From Sphingobium chungbukense (GTDB taxonomy: Bacteria; Pseudomonadota; Alphaproteobacteria; Sphingomonadales; Sphingomonadaceae): a DNA stretch of 64,000 bases. The position numbers were made by a program, and so were the translations under genes. Shown here piece after piece: positions 6,298 through 39,625 of the stretch (position 1 is the stretch's first letter; each line of letters opens with the position of its first letter). The notes below the pieces were generated by a model. That model made no database searches. It was given only the letters and a program-made list of their open reading frames with translations, and was not told the DNA's origin. The stretch lies in the NCBI RefSeq assembly GCF_001005725.1, contig NZ_LBIC01000003.1:186001-250000 (forward strand), given 5' to 3'.

Positions 6298-6752
6298 GGA
6301 AGCTTGACGTTAGGCCGATCAAGGTTCGCCTCATGGAGCGTATCTCTGTCGAGGGTGAATGCTGGTTCTGGACCGGAACGATAAACCCGAAGGGGTACGG
6401 CTCGCTCTCGGTTCGGGGTCGGTGCAACCTGGCGCACAGGCTGTCTTACGAGGCATTTTGCGGCCCAATCGGTGACGGCCTTCAAATCGATCACCTGTGT
6501 CGCAACAGGGCTTGCATCAATCCTGACCATCTTGAAGCAGTGACCGCTTCTGAGAATTGCAAAAGGGCTGCACCGTTTCATCCTGGCAGCAGGCCTCGAA
6601 CGCACTGCCTGAGAGGTCATGAATTTGCAGGTGATAACCTTTTTGTAGGCCGTGGAGGTAAGCGATATTGCCGGGCATGCTGCCGCATACGTGAAGCTAG
6701 CCGCCGCCACTACCGCCCCACCAAGCAGCCACAGGCGGAACGGGCAGCATGA
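6294..6752 (+). CDS. HNH endonuclease
   Basis: This 152-residue protein has an HNH_3-type core: 'CWFWTG' at the N-terminus, 'HRLSYEAFCGPI', then the metal-binding 'IDHLCRNRACINPDHLEAV' with His/Asn residues, followed by a C-terminal zinc knuckle-like 'CLRGHEF' and 'YCRACCRIR'. Such proteins cut DNA and include free-standing homing endonucleases and phage HNH nucleases. It overlaps both neighbours by ATGA, so it is well integrated in the early operon. Confidence 0.85.
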   Translation: MRKLDVRPIKVRLMERISVEGECWFWTGTINPKGYGSLSVRGRCNLAHRLSYEAFCGPIGDGLQIDHLCRNRACINPDHLEAVTASENCKRAAPFHPGSRPRTHCLRGHEFAGDNLFVGRGGKRYCRACCRIREASRRHYRPTKQPQAERAA

Positions 6753-7000
6753 GGGGCGTTTGCGCTACGTGCCGCTATTTCTTTGTTCAGGATAGCAAGG
6801 CGTTCCCGGATACGGATGGCGTTTGTCGTCGGCATGCTCCGCGAGGCCCTGCCATACCTGCCGGCTCCGGATGGTCCGTTTTTCCGCCAATGATGGCTGG
6901 GCACTGGTGCGGCGAGCATCAGGCGATTCCTCTGGCGGCCATGGGCAAGCGGATGCGCGAGATGACCGCGCTCGTGGAAGCACGAAAGGCCGCAGCATGA
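6749..7000 (+). CDS. Cys-rich small phage protein
   Basis: This 83-residue protein has an N-terminal CATCRYF pair, a VCRRHAP segment and a later HWCGEH; together these could hold a metal ion. The layout resembles small phage proteins of unknown function found beside methyltransferases. It is coupled by ATGA to the methyltransferase downstream. Confidence 0.65.
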   Translation: MRGVCATCRYFFVQDSKAFPDTDGVCRRHAPRGPAIPAGSGWSVFPPMMAGHWCGEHQAIPLAAMGKRMREMTALVEARKAAA

Positions 7001-7758
7001 CCCCCACACATCAGATTGGGAGGGGCGAGAAGCTGCGCGTCCTCGACCTGTTCAGCGGCATCGGCGGTTTCAGCCTTGGCCTTGAGCGCACTGGCGGTTT
7101 CGAGACGGTCGCCTTTTGCGAGATCGAAGAATTTCCCCGCCGCGTGCTGGCGAAACACTGGCCTGAGGTGCCTTGCTATCATGACGTTCGAGAACTCACA
7201 GCCGACGCTCTGGCCCGAGACGGAATTGCCGTCGATGTCATCTGCGGAGGCTTCCCCTGCCAGGACCTGTCTGAAGCTGGACAAAGAGCGGGAATTGATG
7301 GCGAGCGCTCCGGCCTTTGGCGCGAGTTCGCCCGTCTTATTGGCGAAATTCGACCCGCATTTGCGATCGTGGAAAACGTGCCAGAACTCCTTTCTGGAGC
7401 CGGTGGAGAGTGGTTCGCCCGCGTTCTCGGTGACTTGGCCGCGCTCGGGTATGATGCGTGCTGGGACTGCGTTCAAGCTGGCGACCTTGGCGCCGCCCAT
7501 ATCCGAGATCGAGTTTGGATCACGGCTTATGTTCCCGACGCCGCGCAAGAGCGGCATATCCAATGCTGGCGGGAGCAATTCACGCAAAGCCGCGCTCCGG
7601 CGGGGGACGTATATTCCTTCTCGGACGAACCCATGCCTGCAAGAGTGGCTGATGGGGTTCCCGATCGGATGGACCGAGTTGGAGCCTGCGGAAACGCCGT
7701 AGTCCCGCAAATCCCCGAGTTGATCGGGCGGGCGATCCTCCAAAGCATGGAGGCGTAG
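6997..7758 (+). CDS. DNA (cytosine-5) methyltransferase
   Basis: This 253-residue enzyme transfers methyl groups from S-adenosylmethionine to cytosine C5. Motif I is FSGIGGF (residues 19-25), the catalytic Cys88 lies in GGFPCQDLS (motif IV), motif VI is ENV (126-128), motif VIII is HIRDRVW (about 168-174) and motif X is GNAVVPQ near residue 232. The target-recognition segment is very short, so the protein is smaller than the usual 300-400 residues. No restriction partner is present: it is probably an orphan that protects phage DNA. A second coherent frame overlaps its 3' two thirds (7181-7702). Confidence 0.88.
   Translation: MTPTHQIGRGEKLRVLDLFSGIGGFSLGLERTGGFETVAFCEIEEFPRRVLAKHWPEVPCYHDVRELTADALARDGIAVDVICGGFPCQDLSEAGQRAGIDGERSGLWREFARLIGEIRPAFAIVENVPELLSGAGGEWFARVLGDLAALGYDACWDCVQAGDLGAAHIRDRVWITAYVPDAAQERHIQCWREQFTQSRAPAGDVYSFSDEPMPARVADGVPDRMDRVGACGNAVVPQIPELIGRAILQSMEA
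7181..7702 (+). CDS. Overlapping-frame protein inside the methyltransferase gene
   Basis: In another frame of the methyltransferase gene, a reading frame of 173 residues (or 155 from an ATG at 7235) contains 'SAEASPARTC', 'LRSWKTCQNSF', 'VTWPRSGMMRAGTAFKL', 'MFPTPRKS' and a terminal 'EWLMGFPIGWTELE'. These motifs recall a widespread group of phage proteins annotated alone or as methyltransferase-associated. The 'SPART' segment is the shifted reading of the catalytic FPCQDLS codons. Translation is not proven; no good ribosome site is visible. It may be a true overlapping gene or the relic of frame usage in a larger ancestor. Confidence 0.45.
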   Translation: MTFENSQPTLWPETELPSMSSAEASPARTCLKLDKERELMASAPAFGASSPVLLAKFDPHLRSWKTCQNSFLEPVESGSPAFSVTWPRSGMMRAGTAFKLATLAPPISEIEFGSRLMFPTPRKSGISNAGGSNSRKAALRRGTYIPSRTNPCLQEWLMGFPIGWTELEPAETP

Positions 7759-8043: not shown

Positions 8044-8525
8044 CTGGCACAAGCAATTCAGCGGGGATTTCCCCGAATGTTTCCCGCACTGCAATATATC
8101 GGGCGTTCGGCGCTGCGCTGCGCCTCTATGTCGGGGTCGGCAAGCGGCACCGCTACAAGGAAATCGAGCGCGGTGCGGGCGTTTCGGCGCGCATGATCGA
8201 AGCCTATCGCCATGAGCCTGAACACCATGAATGGCGCGAACCGAAAATCGAGGAAATCCTGAGTGTAGCGGGCTTCATCGGCCCTGATTTTCTCAACGAA
8301 ATCCTGCCCGAACTGATCGGCCAGGGCGTGTTCTGGGTTCCCGATGAAAGTGAGCCGCCTCCGGGTCAATTTGCTGCGGATGCGTCAGAGGACACCACCG
8401 AAATTGTGCGCCGCGCCGCAGATGGCATGTTCTGTGCCGATGATCGCAAGCACCTTGCCGCTGTCGGTCGCCGCCAGATCGAACGCGGCCAAGTCCTCGT
8501 CGCTATGGGGAGGAAGGTGGCATGA
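8040..8525 (+). CDS. Putative phage regulator with HTH-like region
   Basis: This 161-residue protein has a helix-turn-helix-like central part ('YKEIERGAGVSARMIEAYRH', about residues 40-60) followed by 'KIEEILSVAGFIGPDFLNEI' and a C-terminal helix. It could be a CII-like or replication-associated DNA-binding protein because of its place after cro. No specific family was recognised. It is coupled by ATGA to genes on both sides. Confidence 0.6.
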   Translation: MTGTSNSAGISPNVSRTAIYRAFGAALRLYVGVGKRHRYKEIERGAGVSARMIEAYRHEPEHHEWREPKIEEILSVAGFIGPDFLNEILPELIGQGVFWVPDESEPPPGQFAADASEDTTEIVRRAADGMFCADDRKHLAAVGRRQIERGQVLVAMGRKVA

Positions 8526-9827: not shown

Positions 9828-10744
9828 CTTCCCCCCTGACACAGCCGGACTGCGATTTGCAGGATTTTCCATTCATGCCGCTGCATGTTTCACGTCTGCG
9901 CGACAGTGATCTTGCCGCGACAGTAGATCCGGAGGCTGCATGGTACGCCGTCATGTTATGGGCCGCGTCTTGGCATCAAATCCCCGCTGCCAGTCTGCCC
10001 GATGACGAAATGGTACTGACACGCCTATGCGGCCTTGGTCGGGACGTAAAGACGTTCCGGAAGTGTCGAGCGGGCGCAATGCACGGTTTCATCCTGTGTA
10101 GGGATGGGCGCTGGTATCATCCTGTTGTCGCTGAACAAGCCAATGCGGCCTGGAAAGCCAAGCAGGAACAGCGCTGGCGGACGGAATGCGCCCGCATCAA
10201 GAAGCACAACCAGCGCCATGGAACAGACTTTGAATTCCCCTCTCTGGACGAATTCATTGATTCCGGTTGCCACCCTGTCCCGCTTACAATCCCATCCAAG
10301 CCCTCAGAATGTCCCCAATCCGTGTCCCAAGATTGTCCCCAGGGACACGGAGAAGATGTCCCTCAGGAAAACACATCCAAGAGACAGGGAGAGGGACAGA
10401 GACAGGGAGATATAATTATAGATGCTTACGCATCTGGGGGCAGCGCTTCCGAAATCGAGGAGGCTGATGGCGAGAACCTCAAGCCGGAGCATTTCATGGA
10501 GGCGTGGAACGAGCTTGCTGCAAGGCTTGGCCGCCCACAGGTTCGCGATCTCACCCCTGAACGCCGCCAGAAACTGAAAGCCCGGATCAACGGGCACACC
10601 ATCGAGGATTTCCAGCAAGTTCTTGGTAGCATTGAGAAATCCCCGTTCCTTCGCGGCGAACGCAACTGGCCCGGCGCAACCTTCGATTGGGTGCTGGGCA
10701 AAGGAAACTTCCAGAAAATTCTTGAAGGGAACTACAACTCATGA
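9824..10744 (+). CDS. DUF1376 phage replication protein
   Basis: This 306-residue protein has an N-terminal DUF1376 domain (about residues 15-120, 'PLHVSRLRDSDLAA' and 'AWYAVMLWAASWHQIPAASLPDDE'), a low-complexity middle rich in Gln, Gly and Ser, and a C-terminal helical domain ('PEHFMEAWNELAARLG', then 'FLRGERNWPGATFDWVL') like those of phage O-type replication proteins. It probably binds origin DNA or loads helicase. The linker is encoded by purine-rich short repeats near 10378-10410. The family is clear; the role is inferred. Confidence 0.75.
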   Translation: MTSPLTQPDCDLQDFPFMPLHVSRLRDSDLAATVDPEAAWYAVMLWAASWHQIPAASLPDDEMVLTRLCGLGRDVKTFRKCRAGAMHGFILCRDGRWYHPVVAEQANAAWKAKQEQRWRTECARIKKHNQRHGTDFEFPSLDEFIDSGCHPVPLTIPSKPSECPQSVSQDCPQGHGEDVPQENTSKRQGEGQRQGDIIIDAYASGGSASEIEEADGENLKPEHFMEAWNELAARLGRPQVRDLTPERRQKLKARINGHTIEDFQQVLGSIEKSPFLRGERNWPGATFDWVLGKGNFQKILEGNYNS

Positions 10745-10956
10745 GCGCGAACCCGCTGAAACGGCAGAGCTATTCCGCGCCTTCCGCCTCCGATGAAGAT
10801 CGGGTGAGCATCGGCCAGCGGGTGGCAGCAAACTACAACGCCCGCCTTTCCATGGAGCCTGTCGATAAGGGCATCCGCTGGATTTACGACGCGAAGGCCG
10901 ACAGCCTGAAACTGGTTCCGCTGTCCGAATATCGCGCCATGCGGGGGGGGCGCTGA
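10741..10956 (+). CDS. Hypothetical early phage protein
   Basis: This 71-residue protein (begins MSANPLKRQSYSAPSASDED) ends with a run of Gly encoded by an eight-G tract (10942-10950), a site prone to slippage. It is coupled to the DUF1376 gene by ATGA. The function is unknown. Confidence 0.6.
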   Translation: MSANPLKRQSYSAPSASDEDRVSIGQRVAANYNARLSMEPVDKGIRWIYDAKADSLKLVPLSEYRAMRGGR

Positions 10957-10957
10957 T

Positions 10958-11164
10958 GTGCCCGCCAACCCCGGCCGCAATCCGTTCGAGGGCAACGAGA
11001 ACCCGCCGCTCGTTGATGTGCGCTATCGCTGTGGTGTTGTCGCCCGCTGCGTGCGTCCAGAACAGCGCCGCTGGAAGCAATGGCCCACAGGCCCGCATGA
11101 ATGGGACATCGTTTCGTGGCAACCCGCTGTCGGCAAGGATTACGAGCTTGTCTGGCCTGCCTGA
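10958..11164 (+). CDS. Hypothetical early phage protein (GTG start)
   Basis: This 68-residue protein starts with GTG at 10958, just after the preceding stop, and contains 'DVRYRCGVVARCVRPEQ' and a C-terminal 'HEWDIVSWQPAVG' typical of small phage proteins. A competing frame from ATG 10956 to 11204 gives a low-complexity product and is considered a shadow. The function is unknown. Confidence 0.55.
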   Translation: MPANPGRNPFEGNENPPLVDVRYRCGVVARCVRPEQRRWKQWPTGPHEWDIVSWQPAVGKDYELVWPA

Positions 11165-11203
11165 CGCCCCCGCAATGTACGACGCCGCTGAAGGAGATGA
11201 GTG

Positions 11204-11644
11204 ATGGGGAATTATCTACACATCGGCCCCGTAGCCATTCGCTATGGATCGCGTAATCTGGCGAAGTGGGGATTTGAGCGCTTGCGGGTCGGCGGACTGG
11301 CTATGTGGTCGCGGTCCAATTCGGGCGATCTCATTCTGGCAAGCTATCATCCCCGGAGTTCGCTATACTGGCATTGGTCGGTCTGCATCACTAACCGGAC
11401 GCGGGGCTATCACAAGATTTTCAGCCACGCCGAACTTCGGCGCCGTGCCGAGCTTCACGCTGCGGGCAACCAGTATGTGGGTCGCCCGCGTTGGTTTCAT
11501 CGGTTCTACCAGCCAGATACGAGACGCGTCAGCCAGTGGCATGACTATGTGCGCCTGCCCTTCGGGTTTTGCCTCCTGATCAGTCGCCAGGATTATCACA
11601 AACGCCCGCAGTTCGACCGCAAGCACAAGGAGGCGGGGGAGTGA
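11204..11644 (+). CDS. Hypothetical phage protein, His/Arg/Trp-rich
   Basis: This 146-residue protein (begins MGNYLHIGPVAIRYGSRNLA) is unusually rich in Arg, His, Trp and Tyr and predicted all-beta. The ATG at 11204 has an AAGGAG ribosome site at 11191-11196; a GTG at 11201 is possible. It overlaps the next gene (GTGA). No family was recognised. Confidence 0.6.
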   Translation: MGNYLHIGPVAIRYGSRNLAKWGFERLRVGGLAMWSRSNSGDLILASYHPRSSLYWHWSVCITNRTRGYHKIFSHAELRRRAELHAAGNQYVGRPRWFHRFYQPDTRRVSQWHDYVRLPFGFCLLISRQDYHKRPQFDRKHKEAGE

Positions 11645-26408: not shown

Positions 26409-26884
26409 GTGCCCAGACAGTTGTCAGATGTGCTTGCGGGGGACATGCGTTCTTGCGGATGAAACGTGGGGTCGCCTTGATAGACGTCGCAGATTCTAGC
26501 TTGCTCGCTTCAGGCGGGTGGAGTGTCAACGAGGGATATGCTCAACATAAGATCAGGGGCAAGCTTCACCGTGCCATCATTGGCGGAGATTGCGAGGCGA
26601 TAGATCATGTCAATCACGACCGCCTTGACAATCGGAGGCAGAATCTGCGCCCATCCACGCAGCAGGCCAATCAATTCAACAAGAAGCCGCAGGGGGGGCG
26701 ATCTAGGTACAAAGGTGTCACCTGGTATCCCGAACAAGGATGGGTTGCGAGAATAACTCGTGACCGGAAGCGACACTTTTTGGGAGCCTTCCCTACGGAT
26801 GAATTGGCGGCAAGAGCATATGATACTGCTGCGCGAAGACTGTTCGGTGAATTCGCCTTTCTCAACTTCAAGGAAACTTCATAA
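26396..26884 (+). CDS. HNH/AP2 homing-type endonuclease
   Basis: This 162-residue protein combines an HNH core ('LHRAIIGGDCEAIDHVNHDR', 'LDNRRQNLRPSTQQANQFNK') with a C-terminal AP2 domain ('RYKGVTWYPEQGWVARITRD', 'HFLGAFPTDELAARAYDTAA'). It overlaps the GNAT-like gene by 13 bp and the ejection gene by one base, so it is inserted seamlessly in the late operon. It is likely a free-standing homing endonuclease or HNH moron. Confidence 0.88.
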   Translation: MPKVSAQTVVRCACGGHAFLRMKRGVALIDVADSSLLASGGWSVNEGYAQHKIRGKLHRAIIGGDCEAIDHVNHDRLDNRRQNLRPSTQQANQFNKKPQGGRSRYKGVTWYPEQGWVARITRDRKRHFLGAFPTDELAARAYDTAARRLFGEFAFLNFKETS

Positions 26885-27597
26885 TGTGCCCCCCGGCAGT
26901 AGCAATTGCGGGCGCGGCGGTCGCTGGCGGCATTTCCACTGCTGTCGCAGGGTCCAAAGCCGCCAAGGCGCAAAAGCAGGGTGCGAAGGCGGCGGCTGAC
27001 GCTTCGGAGCGCGCCACGCAGCTTCAGGTCGACGAGGCTAAGCGTCAATATGACCTGACCCGCTCCGACTATGAACCATACCGCGAGACGGGCTACAAGG
27101 CACTGGATACGCTGGCTGGCCTCTATGGCGTTGGCGGCACGAAAATAGATCCTACGGCGGCGCTGGAGGCCACGCCGGGCTACAAGTTCCAGTTGGATGA
27201 GGGGTTGAAGGCTATCAACCGCAGCAACGCGGCTCGCGGCATCCTCAACAGCGGCGGCGCGGACAAGGCCCGCATGCGGTATGCTTCGGGGCTGGCGGCG
27301 TCGAACTATGACGCCTTCGCCAACCGGATTGCCGCTCTTGCGGGTGTAGGCCAGTCAGCGACCGGCCAGACAGCGGCGGCGGGACAGGCCGCATCCAACG
27401 CGATTACTTCGGCTTATGGAGTAAATGGGCAGAACCAGGCCAACGCCGCGATGGCGGCGGGCAATGCGCGCGCGTCGAGCTATGCTAATATAGGGGCGTC
27501 GATCTCAGGGGCGACCAATAACCTCGCGTCCCTCTACCTGATGAATAACGGCGGGTGGTTTAATCGGCCAACCGGCACGGCTGGGGGGAATATCTGA
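26884..27597 (+). CDS. Ejection/DNA-transfer protein (gp7-like)
   Basis: This 237-residue protein has an N-terminal glycine/alanine-rich hydrophobic helix ('VAIAGAAVAGGISTAVAGSK'), a coiled coil ('ASERATQLQVDEAKRQYDLT') and 'YEPYRETGYKALDTLAGLYG', the hallmark of podoviral internal virion proteins injected with the DNA. Its C-terminus is Ala/Asn/Gly-rich. It corresponds in order to P22 gp7. It would help form the trans-envelope channel. Confidence 0.75.
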   Translation: MCPPAVAIAGAAVAGGISTAVAGSKAAKAQKQGAKAAADASERATQLQVDEAKRQYDLTRSDYEPYRETGYKALDTLAGLYGVGGTKIDPTAALEATPGYKFQLDEGLKAINRSNAARGILNSGGADKARMRYASGLAASNYDAFANRIAALAGVGQSATGQTAAAGQAASNAITSAYGVNGQNQANAAMAAGNARASSYANIGASISGATNNLASLYLMNNGGWFNRPTGTAGGNI

Positions 27598-28613
27598 TGG
27601 CCTCCAATCCTTGGGAAATCCTTGCCCGCGCCCGTGATGAGACGAACAGCCTGCCCCAACTGTACATGCAGTTGAAGCGGCAGCGGATGAGCGATCTGAT
27701 GGCAGCTAAGACATTGGAGCTAAAAATCCGCGAACAAGATCGCGCCGACAAGAAAGAGTCCGAGTGGAATTCCCTTGTGGCCCAACTTTACCCGAAAGGA
27801 GGTGATCAGGCGTCTGGTGGAACCGGAGCGATCACGCAACCCCCTGCCTCTGCTGCTCCGGTTGCATCTCCACCCGTCGCGCCGCCCGGCACCCAGAGCA
27901 TTGCCGACAGTCTAACACCCGATCAGGACGCAGCTATCCGCCAAGGATTGGGCGAGGAGCGCTATCAGGCATGGAAGGCGCGAAATGGTGCTTCTCCTGC
28001 GCCGGAGCCGGCTGCGGTAGAGCCGCACCCACTCGACAATCATCCTCTCGATCAACCATTGCCACCCCGGACCGATGGCGCGAAGATCAATATGGACGTT
28101 CTGTCCCAGATGATTTTGCATGATCCCCAAAGGGGTTCGCAGATTCAACGCGCTATCTACGACGCCGACAAGCATCAACTGGACATGATGACCCGTCGCG
28201 GCGAGGCGATGGCTGTCGCGGCGTCGGCCCTGCGCGGCATCCCGAAAGAATTGCGTATGGCAGAGTTGCAAAGCAAGTGGGGGAATTACCTCGCTGACCG
28301 GGGCTTTCCAGCAGACCAGCTTCAGCACGCAGACCTGTCTGATCAAGGGTTGGAGACCTATTACCGGCAGGGTCGTGCGCTGGAAAAGCTGATTGCGAGC
28401 GCTGAGGATGACCGGGATTACCGTCTGCGCGTCGAGAACCAGAACGCCGATAATGCGCGGGCTGATCGCGCAGATGCGCGCGCTGATGCGAATCTTAGCC
28501 TTTCCGAACGCCGTGAAGCACGGCTAGCCGCATCCGCAGGCGCAAAAAGTTCGGCTCCGCAGTATGAGTATCGCATTGGCCCGGATGGCAAACTCCAGCG
28601 AAGGAAGAAATAA
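27597..28613 (+). CDS. Ejection protein (gp20 position)
   Basis: This 338-residue protein is helical and charged with a Pro/Ala-rich middle (about residues 75-150), a 'HPLDNHPLDQPLPP' repeat, and a C-terminal Arg/Asp/Ala coiled coil ('NADNARADRADARADANLSL'). It is flanked by gp7-like and gp16-like genes, sharing one base with each, so it should be the gp20 counterpart. Sequence alone gives no family. Confidence 0.65.
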   Translation: MASNPWEILARARDETNSLPQLYMQLKRQRMSDLMAAKTLELKIREQDRADKKESEWNSLVAQLYPKGGDQASGGTGAITQPPASAAPVASPPVAPPGTQSIADSLTPDQDAAIRQGLGEERYQAWKARNGASPAPEPAAVEPHPLDNHPLDQPLPPRTDGAKINMDVLSQMILHDPQRGSQIQRAIYDADKHQLDMMTRRGEAMAVAASALRGIPKELRMAELQSKWGNYLADRGFPADQLQHADLSDQGLETYYRQGRALEKLIASAEDDRDYRLRVENQNADNARADRADARADANLSLSERREARLAASAGAKSSAPQYEYRIGPDGKLQRRKK

Positions 28614-30991
28614 TGGCCGATGACGGTTGGGAGGACGTGACCGACCCCGCTGAGATCAAGAAGGTTCTCGGCTTAAAGGCCGCGCAATCTATGCTGGGCG
28701 GTGGCGGCAAGGGTGACGACAAAACCGCCCTCCGGGCAAACGGATTGGACGCCCTCGCCTCACAGGTTGATCGGGTTTATGACCTTTATCAGCAGAACGT
28801 TCGCGGCGGCTGGCCCAATTCTATTTCTGGGCGCGTCCCATCCACTTTGCGTCCGGAAAATAGTCAGTTTGAGAGCGCGGGAGCAGGCCTTTCAGACCAA
28901 GCACTCGCAGCATTTCGCGTGCCTGGTGTTGGCGCGCAGTCGGATCGCGAACTAGAGTCATTTATTGCCGCCAATCAGCCCCTTCCGACCGATAGCGATT
29001 TGGCAATCGAGGAAAAGCTGAGCAACATTCGCCGTCGCGTCGATGCGCAGCGCAATGCTCTGGGCATGACGCCTTGGTCGTGGAAAGGCGCTGCGGACAG
29101 TGCAGAAAAAGCGCCCCAGGACAAGCGCGAGGATGATTCTCCACCGATCATCATCCCCAAGGCTGCCGGCGAGGCAGGCAGAGATGGTGCCACCGGCCCT
29201 GGTCCCGCTGGCCCCAGCGCGCCTACAATCTCCCCTGATGGTTCCAGCGAATGGTCAACCGACGCAGACAAGGCCTTCGCGGCTGAAGCGCAGGCGGCGT
29301 TCAATGCTGGCGCTAACCGCGAGCAATTGGATGCTATAGCCGAGAAATATGGAACTCGTCCCTTCGGTCCAGAACTTGAGGGCGCGATCCGTTACCGTGA
29401 TGGCGGCGGCAAGGGCGTGAGGTTCACCGTCCCTACTTCTGGGCGGAAGGATAGTTCGTGGATCGGTGCGCTCGGCGCTACGCCATATGGCACTGCGACG
29501 GCTGAGTTTCTTAACAGTATCGTGCCGGTCGATGAAGTCGCCGGTTTAATAGGCGGTGAAGGTGCGGCGAAAAGGGCGCAAGATGCCAAAGAGGCCATGC
29601 GCGAAGCCCACCCCATTGCTTCCATCATCGGAGGCACGGCTGGTGGCCTCGCGGCGACGGTCCCGGCTGCGCGTGGCTTGCGCGCCGCCACAGGCTTGTC
29701 GATAGCTAAAAGCGCCCTTGCTGCCGACGCAGCCTATGGCGCTGCATCCGGTGCGCTGGAGAACAACGACGACCGCCTGACCGGCGCAGCCCTTGGCGGA
29801 ACACTTGGGGCGTTAGGTAATCTTGGCGGTCAGGCGGTCAACCGGGTTGTATCGCGCACCCTCTCCCCTGCGGTCGCTGGTGTGGTGAAGACGCTTACCG
29901 ACAAGGGGGTTAACCTCACTCCCGGCCAGATCGCTGGGCAGGGGGGCTGGCTAGGCCGTGTCGCCAAGGGCGTTGAAGACCGCCTTTCTGGCATTCCGCT
30001 GGCGGGCGAGTCGGTAAATACCGGACGCCGGGCTGCTATCGAGGACATGAACCGGGTGGCCATAGACGAGGCACTTGCTCCAATCGGGGCGAAGCTGCCG
30101 AAGGACGTGGCAACGGGCCATGATGCTGTGGCTTGGGGGCAGCGCGCTCTGAGCGATGCCTATGACAATGCGCTTGGGGCCATCAACGCGCTCCCCGATA
30201 ACCAACTCACACAAGACGTGTCGTCGCTATACCAGCAGTCCCGCACCCTTCCCAAAGCGCAGCGAGAGACGTTCGATGCGATTGCCATGGGTGACGTACT
30301 GCCCTTTCTCCAGAACGGCAACGGCGCATTGGCGGGGCGCGACCTTCAATCCATTAAGCGTGGACTGGATTCCAGGATTTCCAAGGCTCGTAGCAGTTCG
30401 GCCCCTGCGGATGACTTGTTGGCAGATAGGCTCGAAGAAATGCGGGCCGCATTCTTTGATTTTGCTGGTCGCGCCGATCCCGCCAATCTTTCCGCCTACA
30501 AGGCTGCGGATGATGCATATGCGAATTTCGTTGCCATAGAGCGGGCGGCGGCCAAGGGGAAAGGTGGCGTCTATTCCCCAGAGCAATTGCGCACGGCTGT
30601 CCGGCAGTCTGACCGAAGCGCCCGCAAGCGTGCTACCGCTGCTGGGGGTGCGCGCATGCAAGAGTTTTCCGACGCCGCAAGCGAAGTCCTTCCATCGAGT
30701 GTTCCCGACTCTGGAACGGCCGGACGCCTCCAGTTGGGGCAGCTATTTCTCCCCGGCGCGGCCGTAGGATTGGGCGCAGGCGCTGACTATACCGACAGCC
30801 CTACGCTGGCGACGTTGGCAGGCGGCGCAGGCGCCTTGTCCGCGATCTACAGCCGTCCGGGTCGTAAGGTGGTGCAATCAATGATGACCGAGCGCCCCCA
30901 GTCCTTCGTGAAATTGGGCGATCTTATCGGCGGTCGTCAGGCCGAGACGGGACAGACGGCGGCGCAACTGTTTCTGAAGGGATCACAATAG
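28613..30991 (+). CDS. Large ejection protein (gp16 position)
   Basis: This 792-residue protein is the largest late product. The N-terminal 250 residues are charged and partly disordered; 'HPIASIIGGTAGGLAATVPA' and 'TGLSIAKSALAADAAYGAAS' (about residues 335-390) form glycine-zipper-like membrane segments, followed by long helices and a C-terminal hydrophobic stretch. The glycine-zipper segments fit a protein that inserts in the host membrane during DNA injection, as P22 gp16. Its 3' end overlaps a gene on the other strand by 68 bp. Confidence 0.7.
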   Translation: MADDGWEDVTDPAEIKKVLGLKAAQSMLGGGGKGDDKTALRANGLDALASQVDRVYDLYQQNVRGGWPNSISGRVPSTLRPENSQFESAGAGLSDQALAAFRVPGVGAQSDRELESFIAANQPLPTDSDLAIEEKLSNIRRRVDAQRNALGMTPWSWKGAADSAEKAPQDKREDDSPPIIIPKAAGEAGRDGATGPGPAGPSAPTISPDGSSEWSTDADKAFAAEAQAAFNAGANREQLDAIAEKYGTRPFGPELEGAIRYRDGGGKGVRFTVPTSGRKDSSWIGALGATPYGTATAEFLNSIVPVDEVAGLIGGEGAAKRAQDAKEAMREAHPIASIIGGTAGGLAATVPAARGLRAATGLSIAKSALAADAAYGAASGALENNDDRLTGAALGGTLGALGNLGGQAVNRVVSRTLSPAVAGVVKTLTDKGVNLTPGQIAGQGGWLGRVAKGVEDRLSGIPLAGESVNTGRRAAIEDMNRVAIDEALAPIGAKLPKDVATGHDAVAWGQRALSDAYDNALGAINALPDNQLTQDVSSLYQQSRTLPKAQRETFDAIAMGDVLPFLQNGNGALAGRDLQSIKRGLDSRISKARSSSAPADDLLADRLEEMRAAFFDFAGRADPANLSAYKAADDAYANFVAIERAAAKGKGGVYSPEQLRTAVRQSDRSARKRATAAGGARMQEFSDAASEVLPSSVPDSGTAGRLQLGQLFLPGAAVGLGAGADYTDSPTLATLAGGAGALSAIYSRPGRKVVQSMMTERPQSFVKLGDLIGGRQAETGQTAAQLFLKGSQ

Positions 30992-31262
30992 AGGGAGGTT
31001 GCTGGGCTGGGTGTTTCAACCCAGTATCTATCGCAACAAAAAGTCCACCGCCGATTCCAAAAATCAGCGCGCTCCACATAAGCCGTAGCGACCAAATGCC
31101 GATCAGATCGACGCGGCGGTCATTCCAGTATCCCGCATTACGCACATGAGCCGGAAGGAGCGCTCGACGTTCCTTCCATTTTTCGTACCGCCCTATTAGA
31201 AAATAGATGATGGTTGAACAGAAGGCCGTCAGAACGGCTTTCTTGATATACCAGTCATCCAT
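30924..31262 (-). CDS. Membrane protein (candidate exclusion factor)
   Basis: This 112-residue protein has two hydrophobic spans ('AVLTAFCSTIIYFLIG', residues about 8-24, and 'LRLMWSALIFGIGGGLFVAI', about 59-80) separated by a basic loop, and a Pro-rich tail. It is the last gene of a leftward group topped by the Arc-like repressor and takes the place of sieA in P22. A role in superinfection exclusion or host-surface change is inferred only from place and topology. Confidence 0.6.
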   Translation of the reverse strand: MDDWYIKKAVLTAFCSTIIYFLIGRYEKWKERRALLPAHVRNAGYWNDRRVDLIGIWSLRLMWSALIFGIGGGLFVAIDTGLKHPAQQPPSIVIPSETVAPPSVPSRPDDRR

Positions 31263-31585
31263 TATCGGGCAGTCGTCTTGCAGACGTTTATGCCACCCAT
31301 ACTAGAGTTCGGCTTGCATCGATACCCGCACTCATCATCGCCCACTAAATGATCTCCATCAAGCTGACGTATTTCGTTCGTGTATCGTAGCACCATTCTA
31401 GCCGCCTCTTGGCATTTCTCTAAGCTTTCAAACGACCCAAGCGGAATGTCTGCGGCTAAGCTGTTTTGGTCTGGATAGGCCCATCCCTTCCACTCCAATT
31501 TTTCTGGCCACGCAAAAAATAAACCAATCGCCGCGCCAATAAATATAGGGAAAAGCACGGCATTTGATAAATGCTGATGCTTCAT
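31262..31585 (-). CDS. Single-pass membrane/exported protein
   Basis: This 107-residue protein has an N-terminal membrane anchor ('AVLFPIFIGAAIGLFFAW', residues about 9-26) and a soluble part with four Cys (CQEA, CGYRCK, VCKT), probably disulfide-bonded in the periplasm. It overlaps both neighbours (1 bp and ATGA). Base composition is AT-richer than the virion genes. The function is unknown. Confidence 0.6.
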   Translation of the reverse strand: MKHQHLSNAVLFPIFIGAAIGLFFAWPEKLEWKGWAYPDQNSLAADIPLGSFESLEKCQEAARMVLRYTNEIRQLDGDHLVGDDECGYRCKPNSSMGGINVCKTTAR

Positions 31586-32004
31586 TGAGCAATATATTTC
31601 ACGACCAGCATCTTAGTCTGTGTTTTACTGCCACCCATAGCGAAGAACCCCCCTAAGATCGCCCCGCTTCCGGCTCCGCCAGTAGCTCCTGCTTCGTCTT
31701 GGGCCAACACAATCACAGCATCACCACCCGCAGCCAGCACTTGCTTTGCTACCGCTGGACTTCCGATAGCATGTCCTCCGTCCCAGTTCTCATCGCGTTT
31801 ATCGCTGATAAAGCCGATCACCTGATATTTGCGTGGCGGTGTCCCCGTCGTCCACCAGTCGATATCGTTTTTCCGGAGTTTTGTGCCGCCATCGCCATTC
31901 TGAACCCTCTCAGGCCCTTCGTAGGCAGAAAACTGGATTTTAGCGCCAGCGAAAGCAGCGCTCGGCATGGATAGCAGCAATGCCGCAAGAATGATTCCCC
32001 TCAT
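31582..32004 (-). CDS. Secreted protein with signal peptide
   Basis: This 140-residue protein has a clear Sec signal peptide (MRGIILAALLLSMPSAAFAG, cleavage near residue 19) and a mature domain with 'YQVIGFISDKRDENWDGGHA' and a Gly-rich 'GATGGAGSGAILGGFFAMGG'. It would be periplasmic or outer-membrane associated. As a lysogen-expressed exported protein it is a candidate for blocking DNA entry or altering the surface. No family was recognised. Confidence 0.65.
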   Translation of the reverse strand: MRGIILAALLLSMPSAAFAGAKIQFSAYEGPERVQNGDGGTKLRKNDIDWWTTGTPPRKYQVIGFISDKRDENWDGGHAIGSPAVAKQVLAAGGDAVIVLAQDEAGATGGAGSGAILGGFFAMGGSKTQTKMLVVKYIAQ

Positions 32005-32046
32005 CCCCCTCCCCTACCTCATTGAGAGATAAGGGACAAGACAGCC

Positions 32047-32175
32047 CTATTCGGCGGGATGAACGCTCTTGTGGCGCGAATCATAGCTCCGGCGCAGCAG
32101 ATGCATCGTCAGCCATGCGCCGCCAGCAAGGCCGAAGCCTACCAGGGGGAATGCAATCTGAAACCAGTCCGCCAT
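32047..32175 (-). CDS. Tiny membrane protein
   Basis: This 42-residue protein (begins MADWFQIAFPLVGFGLAGGA) has one transmembrane helix (residues about 5-25) and a basic C-terminus. It was found in the gap between two genes of the leftward group, lying 2 bp after the upstream stop. The function is unknown. Confidence 0.55.
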   Translation of the reverse strand: MADWFQIAFPLVGFGLAGGAWLTMHLLRRSYDSRHKSVHPAE

Positions 32176-32177
32176 CT

Positions 32178-32393
32178 CTATTCCTCCGGCCGCATGTAGA
32201 ACGGCCCCGCAATCGACATGCCCAGCAACGCCAAGCCTGCCAGCATACCTCCTAATATAACGTAGGAAGTCGCTGTTGGATCACCATACCATAGGCCGAT
32301 AGCGCCAGCAAACCACGCCAGACTGGCATTGCCGCAGAAGGACGATATGGCTTTCTGGGCTTCGTTGAAGCGGACGGCATCAATGTCTTTCAT
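32178..32393 (-). CDS. Small two-span membrane protein
   Basis: This 71-residue protein has two hydrophobic helices ('ASLAWFAGAIGLWYG', about 23-37, and 'SYVILGGMLAGLALLGMSIA', about 43-62). Its start overlaps the Arc-like gene by ATGA, so it should be made together with that regulator. The function is unknown. Confidence 0.6.
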   Translation of the reverse strand: MKDIDAVRFNEAQKAISSFCGNASLAWFAGAIGLWYGDPTATSYVILGGMLAGLALLGMSIAGPFYMRPEE

Positions 32394-32734
32394 TCTGGAG
32401 CGCTATCCGCATAGGGATAGAAGCTTACCACGTCGTCCACGCACTTGACGCACCAAGGGGTTTTGGCGCTCGCCAAAGCGCGGTTCACTTCCGCGAAATA
32501 TTCGGCTCCCCCGTCGCTTTCATATGTCTGGGTGACAAGGCCACTAAGGAAAGCGGCAAGCTCATGCGCATTGATCGTTGGCTGGGGAAACTCGCGCTCC
32601 AGCACGGATGTGATGAGGGCATTCACGCTCGTTTTAGATTGGCTGGCGGCTTCAATAACCCGCTGCTTGAGGTCGGGAGGCAAACGAAGCCCGAAGGGCG
32701 CGATACGCTTTTCTGATTCACAGCAATATTCCAT
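32390..32734 (-). CDS. Arc-like ribbon-helix-helix repressor
   Basis: This 114-residue protein contains an Arc/MetJ-type ribbon-helix-helix domain (residues about 10-50): strand 'RIAPFGLRLPPDLKQRVIEA' and helices 'ASQSKTSVNALITSVLEREF'. An added C-terminal domain of about 60 residues (two Cys in CVKC) is unlike P22 Arc (53 residues). It heads the leftward membrane-protein operon and faces the ParB-domain gene, matching the mnt/arc-ant switch of P22 immI. Targets are inferred. Confidence 0.8.
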   Translation of the reverse strand: MEYCCESEKRIAPFGLRLPPDLKQRVIEAASQSKTSVNALITSVLEREFPQPTINAHELAAFLSGLVTQTYESDGGAEYFAEVNRALASAKTPWCVKCVDDVVSFYPYADSAPE

Positions 32735-32744
32735 CCATCTAGAT

Positions 32745-33380
32745 TTGATCGCCGTTGGTCAACGCCATCGGCCGGTCAATCATGAGGCTGCTCGGCGGCT
32801 GGCGGAATCAATGAAGCAGATTGGTCTTCGTCAGCCGATCACCATCCGGGTTGTTGATGATTATGTCGGCAGCGATGGTCAAAAGGCCGATGGGGTTCCG
32901 GTGCTTGTTGCGGGATACCACCGACTTGAAGCTGCTCGCATTCTTGGCTGGGAAAAAATCGACGCCATTGATGCTGATGACGACGATCTATCCGCTGAGC
33001 TTTGGGAGATAGCTGAGAACCTGCATCGCCACGATCTGTCCAAGGAACAGCGCGACGAGCATATTCGCCGCTATGCGGAATTGTTGGAGGCGAGACAGGT
33101 GACGCAAAATGCTGCACCTGTCTCCAAACTGACGGACGGGAGGAGTAAAGGCCCGCAGCACGAAAAAGGCATCCCACGCCAAATCGCTGAAGAAACAGGG
33201 TTGAGCGTCGATACGGTTCGCCGTGCGCTGAAACCTAAGCCCGTACATCATGAGCCGCCCAAAGAAGTTCATGATGTTCACGATCAAGCTCGGCGTCGGA
33301 TGATGTCGGCTTGGAATAACGCCACTGAAGAAGATCGTCAGTGGTTCCGAGATTGGATCGATAGCCCCGTAATGGGCTGA
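32745..33380 (+). CDS. ParB-domain protein (start uncertain)
   Basis: The protein of about 211 residues has a ParB/Srx-like N-terminal domain: 'VGQRHRPVNHEAARRLAESM', 'GLRQPITIRVVDD', 'VLVAGYHRLEAARILGW' (the GxHR-type box) and 'AENLHRHDLSKEQRDEHIRR', then an HTH-like 'IAEETGLSVDTVRRALK'. No ATG lies at the domain start; TTG 32745 is the most economical choice, ATG 32811 would cut into the domain, and a 5' truncation is possible. It occupies the place of ant in P22 immI. It may be a regulator or an antirepressor analogue. Confidence 0.6.
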   Translation: MIAVGQRHRPVNHEAARRLAESMKQIGLRQPITIRVVDDYVGSDGQKADGVPVLVAGYHRLEAARILGWEKIDAIDADDDDLSAELWEIAENLHRHDLSKEQRDEHIRRYAELLEARQVTQNAAPVSKLTDGRSKGPQHEKGIPRQIAEETGLSVDTVRRALKPKPVHHEPPKEVHDVHDQARRRMMSAWNNATEEDRQWFRDWIDSPVMG

Positions 33381-33395
33381 TCCAAACAAACAGAA

Positions 33396-33421
33396 CGGCG
33401 CAGGGCTGCAACCCCGCGCCG
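33396..33421 (+). terminator. GC hairpin after ParB-domain gene
   Basis: CGGCGC-A-GGG pairs with CCC-C-GCGCCG around a CTGCAA loop (33396-33421). The hairpin is strong, but no T-tract follows, so it may be a processing or pausing structure instead of an intrinsic terminator. Confidence 0.4.
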
Positions 33422-33456
33422 CTCCTAACCCCTAATGCGAAAAGGAGCTTCGCATC

Positions 33457-33753
33457 ATGGCTACTCGCCCTAATAACATTGTTGTGTTCCCGCCCCAAGT
33501 GGTTGCGGGTCAGAAAATTCGCGAAGCAGAACGGATGATCGCCAAACTGCTTGGCTATATCGAAGACGCGGCTCGATTTCCGAAAGACGGTGACCTGCAA
33601 GTCCGCGCCGCGATAGCGCCGGGCATGCTCGATATGTGGAGGGAAATCCTTGAGAAGGCAAAGCTCGAAAGCGAGTTGGCCCAAGCTGGAGATGCGCTGC
33701 TCTACAAGGGTTTGACCTATCGCGCCCAACCCAGCCAGAATGGGGCGCACTAA
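33457..33753 (+). CDS. Hypothetical phage protein
   Basis: This 98-residue protein (begins MATRPNNIVVFPPQVVAGQK) has a helical middle ('IREAERMIAKLLGYIEDAAR'). An AAAAGGAG ribosome site precedes the ATG. It overlaps the next gene by one base. The function is unknown; it lies between the immI-like locus and the tailspike. Confidence 0.6.
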   Translation: MATRPNNIVVFPPQVVAGQKIREAERMIAKLLGYIEDAARFPKDGDLQVRAAIAPGMLDMWREILEKAKLESELAQAGDALLYKGLTYRAQPSQNGAH

Positions 33754-34052
33754 TGACCGACCGTCGCTCCTTCATCACCGCTGCGCTTGCCGCGCCCATT
33801 GTTATCGCGGCGCCCGCCCTAGCTCGGCCGGCAGACCCTGTTGACCGCTATTATGCCGCAACCGACGCCGTAAACGCCAATCGCATGAGCGACGAGGACT
33901 ATACGCAAGTGATAGTCGAATTGGACCAGTGGGAGCCGTCGACGCAGCGCGACCTCCTGCGAAAGTTCATAGCTCAATATGAAGAAGGCGGAACCCCGGC
34001 GATAGAATACCGCCTGCAAATGGTCGAACAGGCCAAGCGGCTGATTTCCTGA
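33753..34052 (+). CDS. Exported protein with Tat-like signal
   Basis: This 99-residue protein begins MTDRRSFITAALAAPIVIAA, with a twin-Arg motif (DRRSFI) followed by a moderately hydrophobic segment and an AxA-type site (ALARP), fitting Tat or Sec export. The mature 70 residues are helical. A strong terminator follows. The function is unknown; an exported phage accessory is suggested. Confidence 0.6.
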   Translation: MTDRRSFITAALAAPIVIAAPALARPADPVDRYYAATDAVNANRMSDEDYTQVIVELDQWEPSTQRDLLRKFIAQYEEGGTPAIEYRLQMVEQAKRLIS

Positions 34053-34058
34053 CCTATC

Positions 34059-34087
34059 GGCGGCCTTCGGGCCGCCTTTCTTTTCTT
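34059..34087 (+). terminator. Rho-independent terminator
   Basis: A 7-bp stem GGCGGCC/GGCCGCC closed by a TTCG tetraloop (34059-34076) is followed by TTTCTTTTCTT. It ends the transcript of the two genes upstream and separates them from the tailspike genes. Confidence 0.92.
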
Positions 34088-34202
34088 CCCCTACCCCGCC
34101 AATCCTGCTATTAAACCATCAGGCAGCGCCTTTGCGCGCGCACGATCGCGGGACGTGCAGCCGAACAGACAACCGCATCCGACCGGATGAAGAGTTGTCT
34201 GC

Positions 34203-34565
34203 ATGCCCGCCATTCTCCTGCCCGAAGGCAAGCAATCCTATCAGAACGCTCTTGGCCTACCTTTGGTGGGCGGCAAGCTCTACACCTATCTGGCCGGCAC
34301 ATCGACGCCTGCCACGACATGGGCCGATCCGGCCAAGACTGTCCCCAACGCCAATCCCGTCATTCTCGACACACGCGGCGAAGCCACGATCTTCTGGGAC
34401 GGCAATTACAAGATCGTCCTGAAGGACGCTTCTGATGTCACGATCTGGACCGTCGATAATGCGACGACCGTGATCGACACCGGGGCTTTCTCCCCCACCC
34501 AACTCACCGACCTTTTCAACGCCATGCAGGCCCAAGGCCTGTTCGATGGCTTCATGGGAGTATGA
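34203..34565 (+). CDS. Tailspike head-binding/adaptor protein
   Basis: This 120-residue protein resembles the N-terminal particle-binding module of podoviral tailspikes: 'YQNALGLPLVGGKLYTYLAG', 'TPATTWADPAKTVPNANPVI', 'DTRGEATIFWDGNYKIVLKD' form short beta segments used to attach spikes to the baseplate. Here the module is a separate gene followed immediately by the spike-like gene. It may serve as an anchor. The assignment is by pattern and position. Confidence 0.7.
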   Translation: MPAILLPEGKQSYQNALGLPLVGGKLYTYLAGTSTPATTWADPAKTVPNANPVILDTRGEATIFWDGNYKIVLKDASDVTIWTVDNATTVIDTGAFSPTQLTDLFNAMQAQGLFDGFMGV

Positions 34566-34566
34566 T

Positions 34567-35913
34567 ATGAGTTTCGCGCGCCTGCTGCTCGCGTTCATGG
34601 CGCTCGCGGCTCTCCAGTCGCCCGCCTTCGCGCAGACCACCATCAACAGCCTTCCGGCCAATACCTCTCCGGCGCCGACTGATAACGTCGCCTGTATGCC
34701 TTCCGGGGCAGTCGCCGGAGGCACGAAGCGATGCACGATCGCGCAACTGTTCGGCGCATCGCATCAGGCATCAGGCGTCAATATCTATGTCGACGCGGTA
34801 GCGGGAACGGATAGCGCGACATGCGGCACCGGCACCGGTGCAGCGGCATGCCGAACCATCCCGCAGGCTTCGCGCAATCTCTGCGTCAATTACAACCATA
34901 CCGCTGTTCCGACCATTCATGGGGTCGCGGGTCAGGTTTATACGCAGGGACTCGCCTTCACCGGGGGGCTGCTTTCCACAGCACTGCCGCAATGCTCTGG
35001 CATCACCAACATCTCCTTCGACGGCCACGGCAGCACGATCAGCACGACCAACGATTGGGCTGTGAAGCTGTACTACACGCCGATCGCGGTCGAACTGCAC
35101 AACGTCACGCTTCAGGCAAGCGGTACTGTCGGCGGCCCGATCCTTGTGCGTGGTGCCGGATTCATTGGCATCAAAGAGGGTGTTACCTTGGGGGCTGCCG
35201 CGCCCGGCTTCCCGCTCATATGGGCTTATGGTGGCGCTCAGGTTGTCACCTGCCCGACGAGCCTTTGCCCTGCCAATACCGTGATCAACATCACTGGCGG
35301 CGGCCTTGCGGCTTTCCTGGCGCAGGAATCGGGCGGTATCCAGATCGAAGGCACTTCGCTCAACATCACGGGTAGCCCTACCTTTACGCTGGCCTTCGCG
35401 GCGGCCACCGATGCGGGGACGATTGCCTTCATCTCGACGCCGATCACAGGCGCCGTCACGGGCGACCAGTTCAGCATCGCCAATAACGCCTTCCTGTACA
35501 CAGGCGGTCAGACAGGCGGCTATTCAGCATGCGCTCTCACCTATCTCCCCGGCACCACATGCGGGCAGGTTTATGCCGAGGGCGCGGTCAGCCAGCCCGG
35601 CACGCCGACGCCCACCAGCGGTTGCGGGACCGGCTGCACGGTTCAGGGGCAAGAACGGGCGTTCGTGGTGATTTATGGAACTGGTCTCGGTTTTGTGAAC
35701 GGGACGACCTATGGCCCTGCCCGTATCACCTTCCGAACCCGCACGGATTACCGCGCCTGCTATGTGCAGCCGAGTGACCCAGCGATCGGCACGCCATGGG
35801 TTCTGATCGCGCCTCCCACCGGTAGCGCCAATGGTTACATGGACATCTACTGGAAGGGCAACGGCTTCGATCCGAACACCAAGGCCCTCTACATAAGCTG
35901 CAACGTGAACTGA
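34567..35913 (+). CDS. Tailspike-like beta-helix protein with signal peptide
   Basis: This 448-residue protein has a pectate-lyase-like parallel beta-helix composition: 'GTGAAACRTIPQASRNLCVN' entry turn, repeated short strands with Asn/Gly turns ('TNISFDGHGSTISTTNDWAV', 'VELHNVTLQASG'), and a C-terminal beta domain ('YMDIYWKGNGFDPNTKALYI'). Unexpectedly, it starts with a Sec-like signal peptide (MSFARLLLAFMALAALQSPA, AFAQ site near residue 23). It contains many Cys in pairs. It likely recognises or degrades surface glycans; the signal peptide is an anomaly for a virion part. Confidence 0.65.
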   Translation: MSFARLLLAFMALAALQSPAFAQTTINSLPANTSPAPTDNVACMPSGAVAGGTKRCTIAQLFGASHQASGVNIYVDAVAGTDSATCGTGTGAAACRTIPQASRNLCVNYNHTAVPTIHGVAGQVYTQGLAFTGGLLSTALPQCSGITNISFDGHGSTISTTNDWAVKLYYTPIAVELHNVTLQASGTVGGPILVRGAGFIGIKEGVTLGAAAPGFPLIWAYGGAQVVTCPTSLCPANTVINITGGGLAAFLAQESGGIQIEGTSLNITGSPTFTLAFAAATDAGTIAFISTPITGAVTGDQFSIANNAFLYTGGQTGGYSACALTYLPGTTCGQVYAEGAVSQPGTPTPTSGCGTGCTVQGQERAFVVIYGTGLGFVNGTTYGPARITFRTRTDYRACYVQPSDPAIGTPWVLIAPPTGSANGYMDIYWKGNGFDPNTKALYISCNVN

Positions 35914-39550: not shown

Positions 39551-39625
39551 TGGTGGGCGCGACAGGGATTGAACCTGTGACCCCACCCGTGTGAAGGGTG
39601 TGCTCTACCGCTGAGCTACGCGCCC
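39551..39625 (-). tRNA. tRNA-Val (CAC)
   Basis: On the minus strand, acceptor GGGCGCG pairs with CGCGCCC, followed by A and encoded CCA (39553-39551). The D-arm is GCTCAGCGGTAGAGC, the anticodon arm is CACCC-TTCACAC-GGGTG with anticodon CAC (Val, codon GUG), and the T-arm has GGTTCAATCC. All arms pair fully. Its 3' end faces the prophage, so it is the likely right attachment site. Confidence 0.95.

What the first reader, a model, noticed from the sequence alone, without database searches (positions are those of the whole stretch)
30924..33380. immI-like switch locus with new contents between ejection and tailspike genes
P22 has sieA-mnt-arc-ant between gene 16 and the tailspike. At the same place this prophage has five small membrane or exported proteins on the minus strand, topped by an Arc-like repressor with an added C-terminal domain, and a divergent ParB-domain gene. 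The membrane genes are coupled to the repressor gene (ATGA), so they should be expressed in the lysogen. They are candidates for superinfection exclusion, and the ParB-domain protein is a candidate antirepressor. GGTCAA half-sites (32757, 32774, inverted at 32745) lie just upstream of or in the start of the ParB gene.
Basis: partly seen in the sequence, partly recalled or inferred. Interest (0 to 1): 0.72.

Follow-up and report, generated by a model that had tools for sequence, protein, structure and literature searches.

The report
Broken P22-type phage immunity switch
A prophage, likely of Sphingobium, carries at the place of phage P22's second immunity switch a repressor gene joined start-to-start to an unrelated ParB-domain gene with none of the control DNA seen in its relatives, so the switch is likely disabled, while small membrane genes coupled to the repressor are predicted to block related phages.

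Summary
The layout is real, and its place is that of P22 immI (the 'ant moron'). Of six other records with the same upstream gene, four (L026, L028, L045, L067) carry there a ribbon-helix-helix repressor divergent from an antirepressor (Rha, KilAC or BRO type), with small leftward cargo genes. The switch itself reads differently. The ParB-domain gene's relatives mostly sit among early phage genes (markers in 10 of 15 loci); none of the 15 shows a tested repressor or antirepressor marker. Its homology starts at codon 2, directly abutting codon 2 of the repressor. Both ancestral start codons and all intergenic control DNA are missing; three relatives have 82-98 bp there with repeats. Neither window start has a clear Shine-Dalgarno sequence. 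The GGTCAA 'half-sites' are ParB codons and not enriched. Best reading: a derived, likely non-functional immI, with repressor and coupled membrane genes kept and arc-ant replaced by a displaced ParB gene. Overlap of a repressor stop with the start of a small membrane or exported gene recurs in four of seven repressor genes compared, not in P22 mnt. Exclusion remains inferred. New variant of a known kind.

The parts
28613..30991 (+). gene in the position of P22 gene 16 (last ejection-region gene); left border of the island
   Evidence: follows 26884-27597, which hits phrog_598 'DNA ejection' (1.8e-30), with 27597-28613 between; no PHROG hit of its own; homologues border the same site in L026, L027, L028, L045, L067
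30924..31262 (-). cargo gene, 112 aa, two hydrophobic segments; 3' end overlaps the gp16-position gene
   Evidence: weak similarity to the 95-aa gene at the same place in L026 (30% over 74, E 0.012-0.015 among 12 cargo proteins)
31262..31585 (-). cargo gene, 107 aa, N-terminal hydrophobic segment
   Evidence: homologue coupled to a Mnt-type gene in L067 (30% over 77, 2.9e-5)
31582..32004 (-). cargo gene, 140 aa, predicted exported protein
   Evidence: 16 relatives at 57-68%; more distant relatives lie directly downstream of a cI-type HTH gene in L102 and L105
32047..32175 (-). cargo gene, 42 aa, one weak hydrophobic segment
   Evidence: similar to the 43-aa gene in the same island of L028 (40% over 35, 1e-4 among 12 cargo proteins)
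32178..32393 (-). cargo gene, 71 aa, hydrophobic segments; start overlaps the repressor stop (ATGA)
   Evidence: cluster representative P0015 is 97% identical over 90%
32390..32734 (-). Mnt-family RHH repressor, 114 aa, with C-terminal domain; first codons and start lie on the ParB side of the junction
32720..32721 (.). junction: codon 2 of the repressor gene (reverse strand) abuts codon 2 of the ParB gene
   Evidence: alignments to L026 mnt, to repressor relatives and to ParB relatives; same sequence in the IMG/VR copy L004
32721..33380 (+). ParB-domain gene, codon 2 to stop, in the antirepressor slot; no start codon at the aligned position
33392..33425 (.). conserved hairpin between the slot gene and 33457
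   Evidence: stem found by the scan in window and L026; the sequence also aligns with L041
33457..33753 (+). 98-aa gene that follows the antirepressor in L026 (61%) and L041 (71%)
33753..34052 (+). 99-aa predicted exported gene; homologues in L028, L041 and L045, one called by eye in L067
34203..35913 (+). small protein plus presumed tail gene (34203-34565, 34546-35913); right border
   Evidence: 34203-34565 hits phrog_26190 of unknown function, 6.9e-13; 34546-35913 no hit; tail role by position

Best explanation
This locus is the immI-type ('ant moron') island of a prophage with P22-like gene order, in which a ParB-domain gene whose relatives mostly sit among early phage genes occupies the antirepressor's slot and abuts the Mnt-family repressor gene codon 2 to codon 2, so the divergent switch is likely disabled while the repressor-coupled membrane genes are predicted to remain as lysogen-expressed exclusion cargo. 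Shown by the sequence and calls: the island's place, the repressor's family, the exchanged cargo, the junction, and the absence of both ancestral start codons and of any intergenic control DNA. Inferred: an ancestor carried repressor | operators | antirepressor as L045 and L026 do; a recombination or deletion removed operators, arc and ant and left the ParB frame in their place. The repressor would use a new start that comes from the first ParB codons, and ParB is likely poorly translated or silent. The leftward operon, if still transcribed, would make the membrane and exported proteins together with the repressor, and these would hinder DNA entry by related phages as P22 SieA does.
For: Site: P22 order gene 16, sieA(-), orf59a(-), mnt(-) | arc(+), ant(+), gene 9. 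Of six other records with a clear homologue of the gp16-position gene, four (L026, L028, L045, L067) have an RHH repressor divergent from an antirepressor there, three of them with an Arc-like gene too; in L027 no repressor or antirepressor was found and L003 has one minus-strand gene. Antirepressors: L026 Rha and phrog_63 'anti-repressor Ant' 1.2e-28; L028 KilAC 1.4e-26 plus Rha; L045 69% to L026 Ant over 98 residues; L067 BRO-like by eye only. Repressor: 13 relatives, 10 with M[STE]ES at the ancestral start. ParB: in six of six close relatives (five distinct sequences) an ATG lies one codon before the residue aligned with 32721; 0 of 15 related loci carry the tested RHH, antirepressor, 33457 or 33753 markers, and 10 of 15 carry early-gene markers. 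L003 has both a gp16-position homologue (about 5.7-7.9 kb) and ParB (30.6 kb), far apart. No clear Shine-Dalgarno at either window start, unlike L026 mnt, arc, ant and L041 arc, bro. A TTG 32745 start would remove the first predicted strand (residues 2-6). The upstream extension from ATG 32613 does not look coding (-0.158, against +0.16 for another frame). GC is lower in the island (0.53-0.56) than in late genes (0.586) or host DNA (0.636).
Against: The ParB frame is intact over 219 codons with coding-like codon use (0.212, although one antisense frame scores 0.224), so it has not visibly decayed; a weak or unusual start cannot be excluded. L028's repressor start and close ParB relatives also lack an obvious Shine-Dalgarno, so its absence is weak evidence. 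The promoter scan finds nothing in intact L026 either, so it is insensitive here. The junction is known from one strain: the IMG/VR copy is identical over 14,640 bases and probably the same assembly. No cargo protein resembles SieA. Five of 15 ParB loci show no early-gene marker. The closest repressor relatives could not be seen in genomic context.
Confidence: 0.7

Rival explanations
1. A working remodelled switch: ParB has taken over the antirepressor role and the RHH protein controls it through sites inside the overlapping 5' ends.
For: ParB sits in the antirepressor slot, its stop ten bases before the conserved sequence that follows the slot gene in L026 and L041; the frame is intact and coding-like; the repressor has an in-frame ATG again.
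Against: No ancestral start, no operator-like site of either relative type above chance, GGTCAA not enriched, no tested repressor or antirepressor marker in any of 15 related ParB loci. In 397 family genomes the next best ParB match scores 85 bits against the window's 273, and of the 20 loci beside the window's own one (L090) has an RHH marker.
Confidence: 0.12
2. The whole island is decaying: neither arm is expressed and the cargo is passive.
For: Loss of the region that holds Pmnt in P22; no clear Shine-Dalgarno for the repressor. Degraded or reduced islands are published for P22-like phages (HK620, Scho1, ST64T, phage L; PMC2629481, PMC8022706).
Against: All six leftward frames are intact and overlapping or closely packed; relatives of the 140-aa and 107-aa proteins are conserved.
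Confidence: 0.2
3. The junction is an assembly error and the strain has a normal intergenic region.
For: Only one strain and probably one assembly carry it.
Against: Contig of 650,774 bases without N in the window; both sides join at meaningful codons and the right border aligns with two relatives.
Confidence: 0.06

Closest known systems
P22 immI region (sieA, mnt, arc, sar, ant)
   Same: Place between the ejection genes and the tail gene; leftward RHH repressor followed by leftward membrane cargo; a rightward gene in the antirepressor slot.
   Different: No arc, ant or operators found; ParB gene in the slot; cargo of five small proteins without SieA similarity, the first overlapping the repressor stop; P22 mnt is not coupled.
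'Ant morons' of P22-like phages (Villafane 2008, PMC2629481), including reduced ones (ST64T, phage L, Scho1, HK620)
   Same: A variable island at the same site; some keep only mnt plus an unknown gene or carry damaged arc or ant.
   Different: No ParB gene is named for them in section 15, which was read whole; the figure itself is not held.
P22 SieA superinfection exclusion (PMC10883804)
   Same: Prophage membrane protein encoded next to gene 16 at this island.
   Different: SieA has 162-164 aa and three predicted membrane segments (abstract and passages); no blastp match to the cargo here at E 0.05.
Phage ParB-domain proteins of early regions (phrog_3264; L003, L005-L018)
   Same: The window gene is homologous over its whole length to the close relatives, up to 59% identity.
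   Different: Relatives have their own ATG and no tested immI marker in their loci.

Membership tests
P22 immI / ant moron | lies between the last ejection gene and the tail gene | tested here: met
   28613-30991 and 34203-35913 flank it; the gp16-position gene borders the same island in four relatives; tail role by position only
P22 immI / ant moron | leftward Mnt-type RHH repressor | tested here: met
   phrog_795, whose label is the product name that P22's record gives mnt, 7.8e-6; phrog_228 7.3e-6; relative in Mnt position in L045
P22 immI / ant moron | divergent arc gene | tested here: not met
   RHH markers hit only the repressor gene in window 31221-34772 (locus L080)
P22 immI / ant moron | antirepressor (Ant, Rha, KilAC or BRO) gene | tested here: not met
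   slot gene is ParB_N plus HTH; three antirepressor markers do not hit window 31221-34772
P22 immI / ant moron | operators and promoters between mnt and arc/ant | tested here: not met
   no intergenic DNA; L026-type operator 6 sites with up to 2 mismatches against 9.3 expected, L045-type 1 against 1.0, none in the locus
SieA superinfection exclusion proteins | sequence similarity to SieA | tested here: not met
   no blastp match at E 0.05; no Pfam match above cut-off and no PHROG match below E 0.08 for the five cargo proteins
SieA-like function | blocks DNA entry of related phages from the lysogen | not testable with these tools
   needs infection assays
phage ParB-domain proteins of early regions | ParB_N domain followed by HTH, homology over the whole length | tested here: met
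   (Pfam ParB_N 26.1 bits against a cut-off of 26.3)
P22-like virion genes | P22-type neck and ejection genes in order | tested here: inconclusive
   phrog_578 'head closure Hc3' 2.2e-114 and phrog_598 'DNA ejection' 1.8e-30 met; no PHROG hit for 27597-28613, 28613-30991 or 34546-35913

The most novel reading that the evidence does not exclude
The start-to-start fusion is a new minimal genetic switch: repressor and ParB genes share their first codons in opposite directions, so the only control DNA lies inside the genes. The RHH protein binding there would silence ParB, while ParB, read from an unusual start, would turn off the repressor and its coupled membrane exclusion operon. ParB would thus serve as a new class of antirepressor.
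Probability: 0.08. Interest if true: 0.75.

Novelty: new variant of a known kind. Interest (0 to 1): 0.45.

Why it matters
immI is a textbook switch known to me mainly from enterobacterial phages. Repressor | antirepressor cassettes at the same site in same-genus and same-family prophages, with exchanged cargo, extend it to what is likely Sphingobium and kin. In four of the seven repressor genes compared, the stop overlaps the start of a small membrane or exported gene, so repressor and cargo would be made together in the lysogen; that makes a set of unknown small proteins testable as exclusion factors. The window shows how such an island can be rebuilt through one junction that leaves out both start codons and the operators.

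Tried and rejected
GGTCAA half-sites as operators: rejected, they are coding and not enriched. Operators of the L026 type (CTTCCAATGG) or L045 type (ACCAC-N-GTGGT) in the window: not above chance. ParB read from ATG 32613: judged unlikely, its extra part is not coding-like. A ParB copy left in the window's early region: tblastn with eight relatives finds only 32721-33389 below E 0.1. A solved-structure match for the window repressor by sequence: none up to E 10; Foldseek puts P22 Arc first but not significantly (E 0.49). Arc-type hits in other genomes (16 of 396 genomes including the own one): of 15 regions fetched, L067 and L069 are immI-like by markers and frames, L065 and L066 look like other elements, and the remaining 11 had the marker search only. 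Short partial matches of the gp16-position gene in L029, L030 and L031 had the marker search only. L040 (G024) has a 33457 relative in what looks like another integrated element and was set aside. Promoter scans: one plus-strand site in the window, at chance level, and none in L026, so uninformative. The idea that the coupling is general was weakened on recount: L026's second RHH (9-base gap), L045 and L069 are not coupled. Papers on ParB and antirepressors (listing): passages of PMC10432266 concern partition genes near other modules and do not make ParB an antirepressor.
Full report
1. What is there. Searches confirm six leftward genes from 32734 down to 30924 and a rightward ParB-domain frame to 33380, between a gene in the position of P22 gene 16 (28613-30991) and presumed tail genes (34203-35913). 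The top leftward gene is an RHH protein with an added C-terminal part (model mean pLDDT 74, pTM 0.42, two helices and a beta hairpin after the RHH part). The window is G000:C3:186001-250000.

2. The site is immI. In P22 gene 16 is followed by sieA, orf59a and mnt leftward and by arc and ant rightward, then gene 9. I looked at six other records with a clear homologue of 28613-30991. L026 (G051): a leftward membrane gene and RHH, an HNH gene, then membrane gene, Mnt-type RHH | Arc, Rha-type antirepressor, a short frame, and the 33457 homologue. L028 (G044): three leftward membrane genes and an RHH | Rha-KilAC antirepressor, then a 33753 homologue; no Arc seen. L045 (IMG/VR contig): a leftward gene and an RHH that is 43% identical to the window's, including its C-terminal domain | Arc-like, antirepressor, 33753 homologue. 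L067 (another genus of the family): leftward genes including a relative of the window's 107-aa protein, Mnt-type | Arc-like, a 33753-like gene by eye, a BRO-like gene by eye. L027 has leftward small genes, and no repressor or antirepressor was found. L003, a complete phage, has one leftward gene. So four of six have repressor | antirepressor. Two further records have the cassette without a gp16-position match: L041 (Arc-like, BRO-N, then 33457 and 33753 homologues) and L069.

3. The repressor is of the Mnt kind by position and family. It has 13 relatives, 10 of which show M[STE]ES at the start of the shared part, one of them inside a longer predicted frame; P0008 and P0011 differ and P0012 is truncated. 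L045's control region has three ACCACGGTGGT sites, sharing the core CCACGGTGG with the annotated P22 mnt operator. L026's has two 17-base repeats with a dyad, and L028's has two 12-base repeats.

4. The junction. Against L026 mnt and the relatives, the window follows the repressor gene back to its second codon and then becomes the ParB gene's second codon. In six of six close ParB relatives (L003, L005-L009; L006 and L007 are identical) an ATG lies one codon before the residue aligned with 32721. The window therefore lacks both ancestral start codons and all DNA between the genes; that space is 82 bp in L026, 87 in L028 and 98 in L045. The repressor's ATG at 32734 lies on the ParB side. Ten bases separate the ParB stop from the conserved sequence that precedes 33457 in L026 and L041, so the ParB frame fits the antirepressor slot closely.

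5. ParB is likely a displaced early gene. It has 15 related loci (L003, L005-L018); two pairs, L006/L007 and L010/L011, are identical in ParB. Early-gene markers of the window (cI, ssb, erf, replication gene, methylase, HNH and neighbours) hit 10 of the 15; L016 shows only a terminase, and L013, L014, L017 and L018 none. None of the 15 carries the tested RHH, antirepressor, 33457 or 33753 markers. Four weaker phage records were not examined. In 397 genomes of the family, 20 including the own one have a match to the ParB profile at 1e-10; the window's scores 273 bits, the next 85, and a few others span most of the profile at 47-69 bits. Of the 20 other loci fetched there, one, L090, has an RHH relative of L028 nearby.

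6. Can ParB be made? TTG 32745 has no clear Shine-Dalgarno and would remove the first strand of the model. ATG 32613 would add 36 codons that do not look coding. ATG 32811 would remove the invariant arginine 17. The frame is nevertheless intact. I take ParB as likely silent or weak, not proven dead.

7. Cargo. No cargo protein has a curated family hit above cut-off or SieA similarity. Small leftward genes recur in the relatives, with weak homologues of the 112-, 107- and 42-aa proteins in L026, L067 and L028. The repressor stop overlaps the next start in the window, L026 mnt and L028 (ATGA) and in L067 (TGATG), but not in L045, L026's second RHH, L069 or P22 mnt: four of seven repressor genes outside P22. 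Relatives of the 140-aa exported protein were found in five other places: directly after a cI-type HTH gene in L102 and L105; in short contigs L103 and L104, without such a gene in the part listed; and in G082 (L108) in what looks like chromosomal DNA. This fits lysogen expression but does not show exclusion. [quoted passage not shown] it is the model for the inference.

8. Literature. The island at this site is published as the 'ant moron', with ten types in sixteen P22-like genomes and several reduced or damaged ones (PMC2629481, section 15 read whole). Phage L keeps a poor mnt homologue and lacks sieA, arc and ant (PMC8022706, abstract and passages). Deleting immI from P22 lowers lysogeny (PMC11016777, passages). 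In the held library 'Sphingobium' with 'prophage' and 'P22-like' finds one soil metagenome paper (listing only), and 'ant moron' finds only the 2008 paper. I saw no description of this locus in the listings of searches; most subscription papers are not in that library.

9. Verdict. Right place, right kind of island, exchanged cargo: supported. Working ParB-antirepressor switch with GGTCAA operators: not supported. New variant of a known kind; interest moderate.

Noticed in passing
window 33392-33456; L026 15240-15302; L041 (reverse) about 10724-10778: Conserved hairpin just before gene 33457; its 3' arm (GCTCC) can also pair with that gene's Shine-Dalgarno (GGAGC) in window and L026, which suggests regulated translation.
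   Followed up: partly
L045 (reverse strand) 8343-8402: Three ACCACGGTGGT sites before an Arc-like gene, sharing CCACGGTGG with the P22 mnt operator although the repressor is only distantly related.
   Followed up: partly
L026 11915-15599: Two repressor cassettes in tandem at one site, with an HNH gene between them.
   Followed up: partly
L102, L105: Relatives of the 140-aa exported cargo protein lie directly downstream of cI-type repressor genes, so the family may be a general lysogen-expressed gene.
   Followed up: partly
L041 (G022:C1), reverse strand 10014-11380: Arc-like, BRO-N, 33457 and 33753 homologues together after genes unlike the P22-type ejection genes: the cassette seems to move between phage types.
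   Followed up: partly
L003 (PP496355.1): Recorded as a Microcystis phage, but several genes resemble those of this Sphingobium-type prophage; the host label may be doubtful.
   Followed up: no
L008 7971-9410; window 6294-7758: In L008 the ParB gene directly precedes the DNA methyltransferase gene; in the window the methyltransferase is preceded by an HNH-like frame.
   Followed up: no
window 39551-39625: tRNA-Val at the likely right end of the prophage; the fetched IMG/VR copy (L004) ends at 39384.
   Followed up: no
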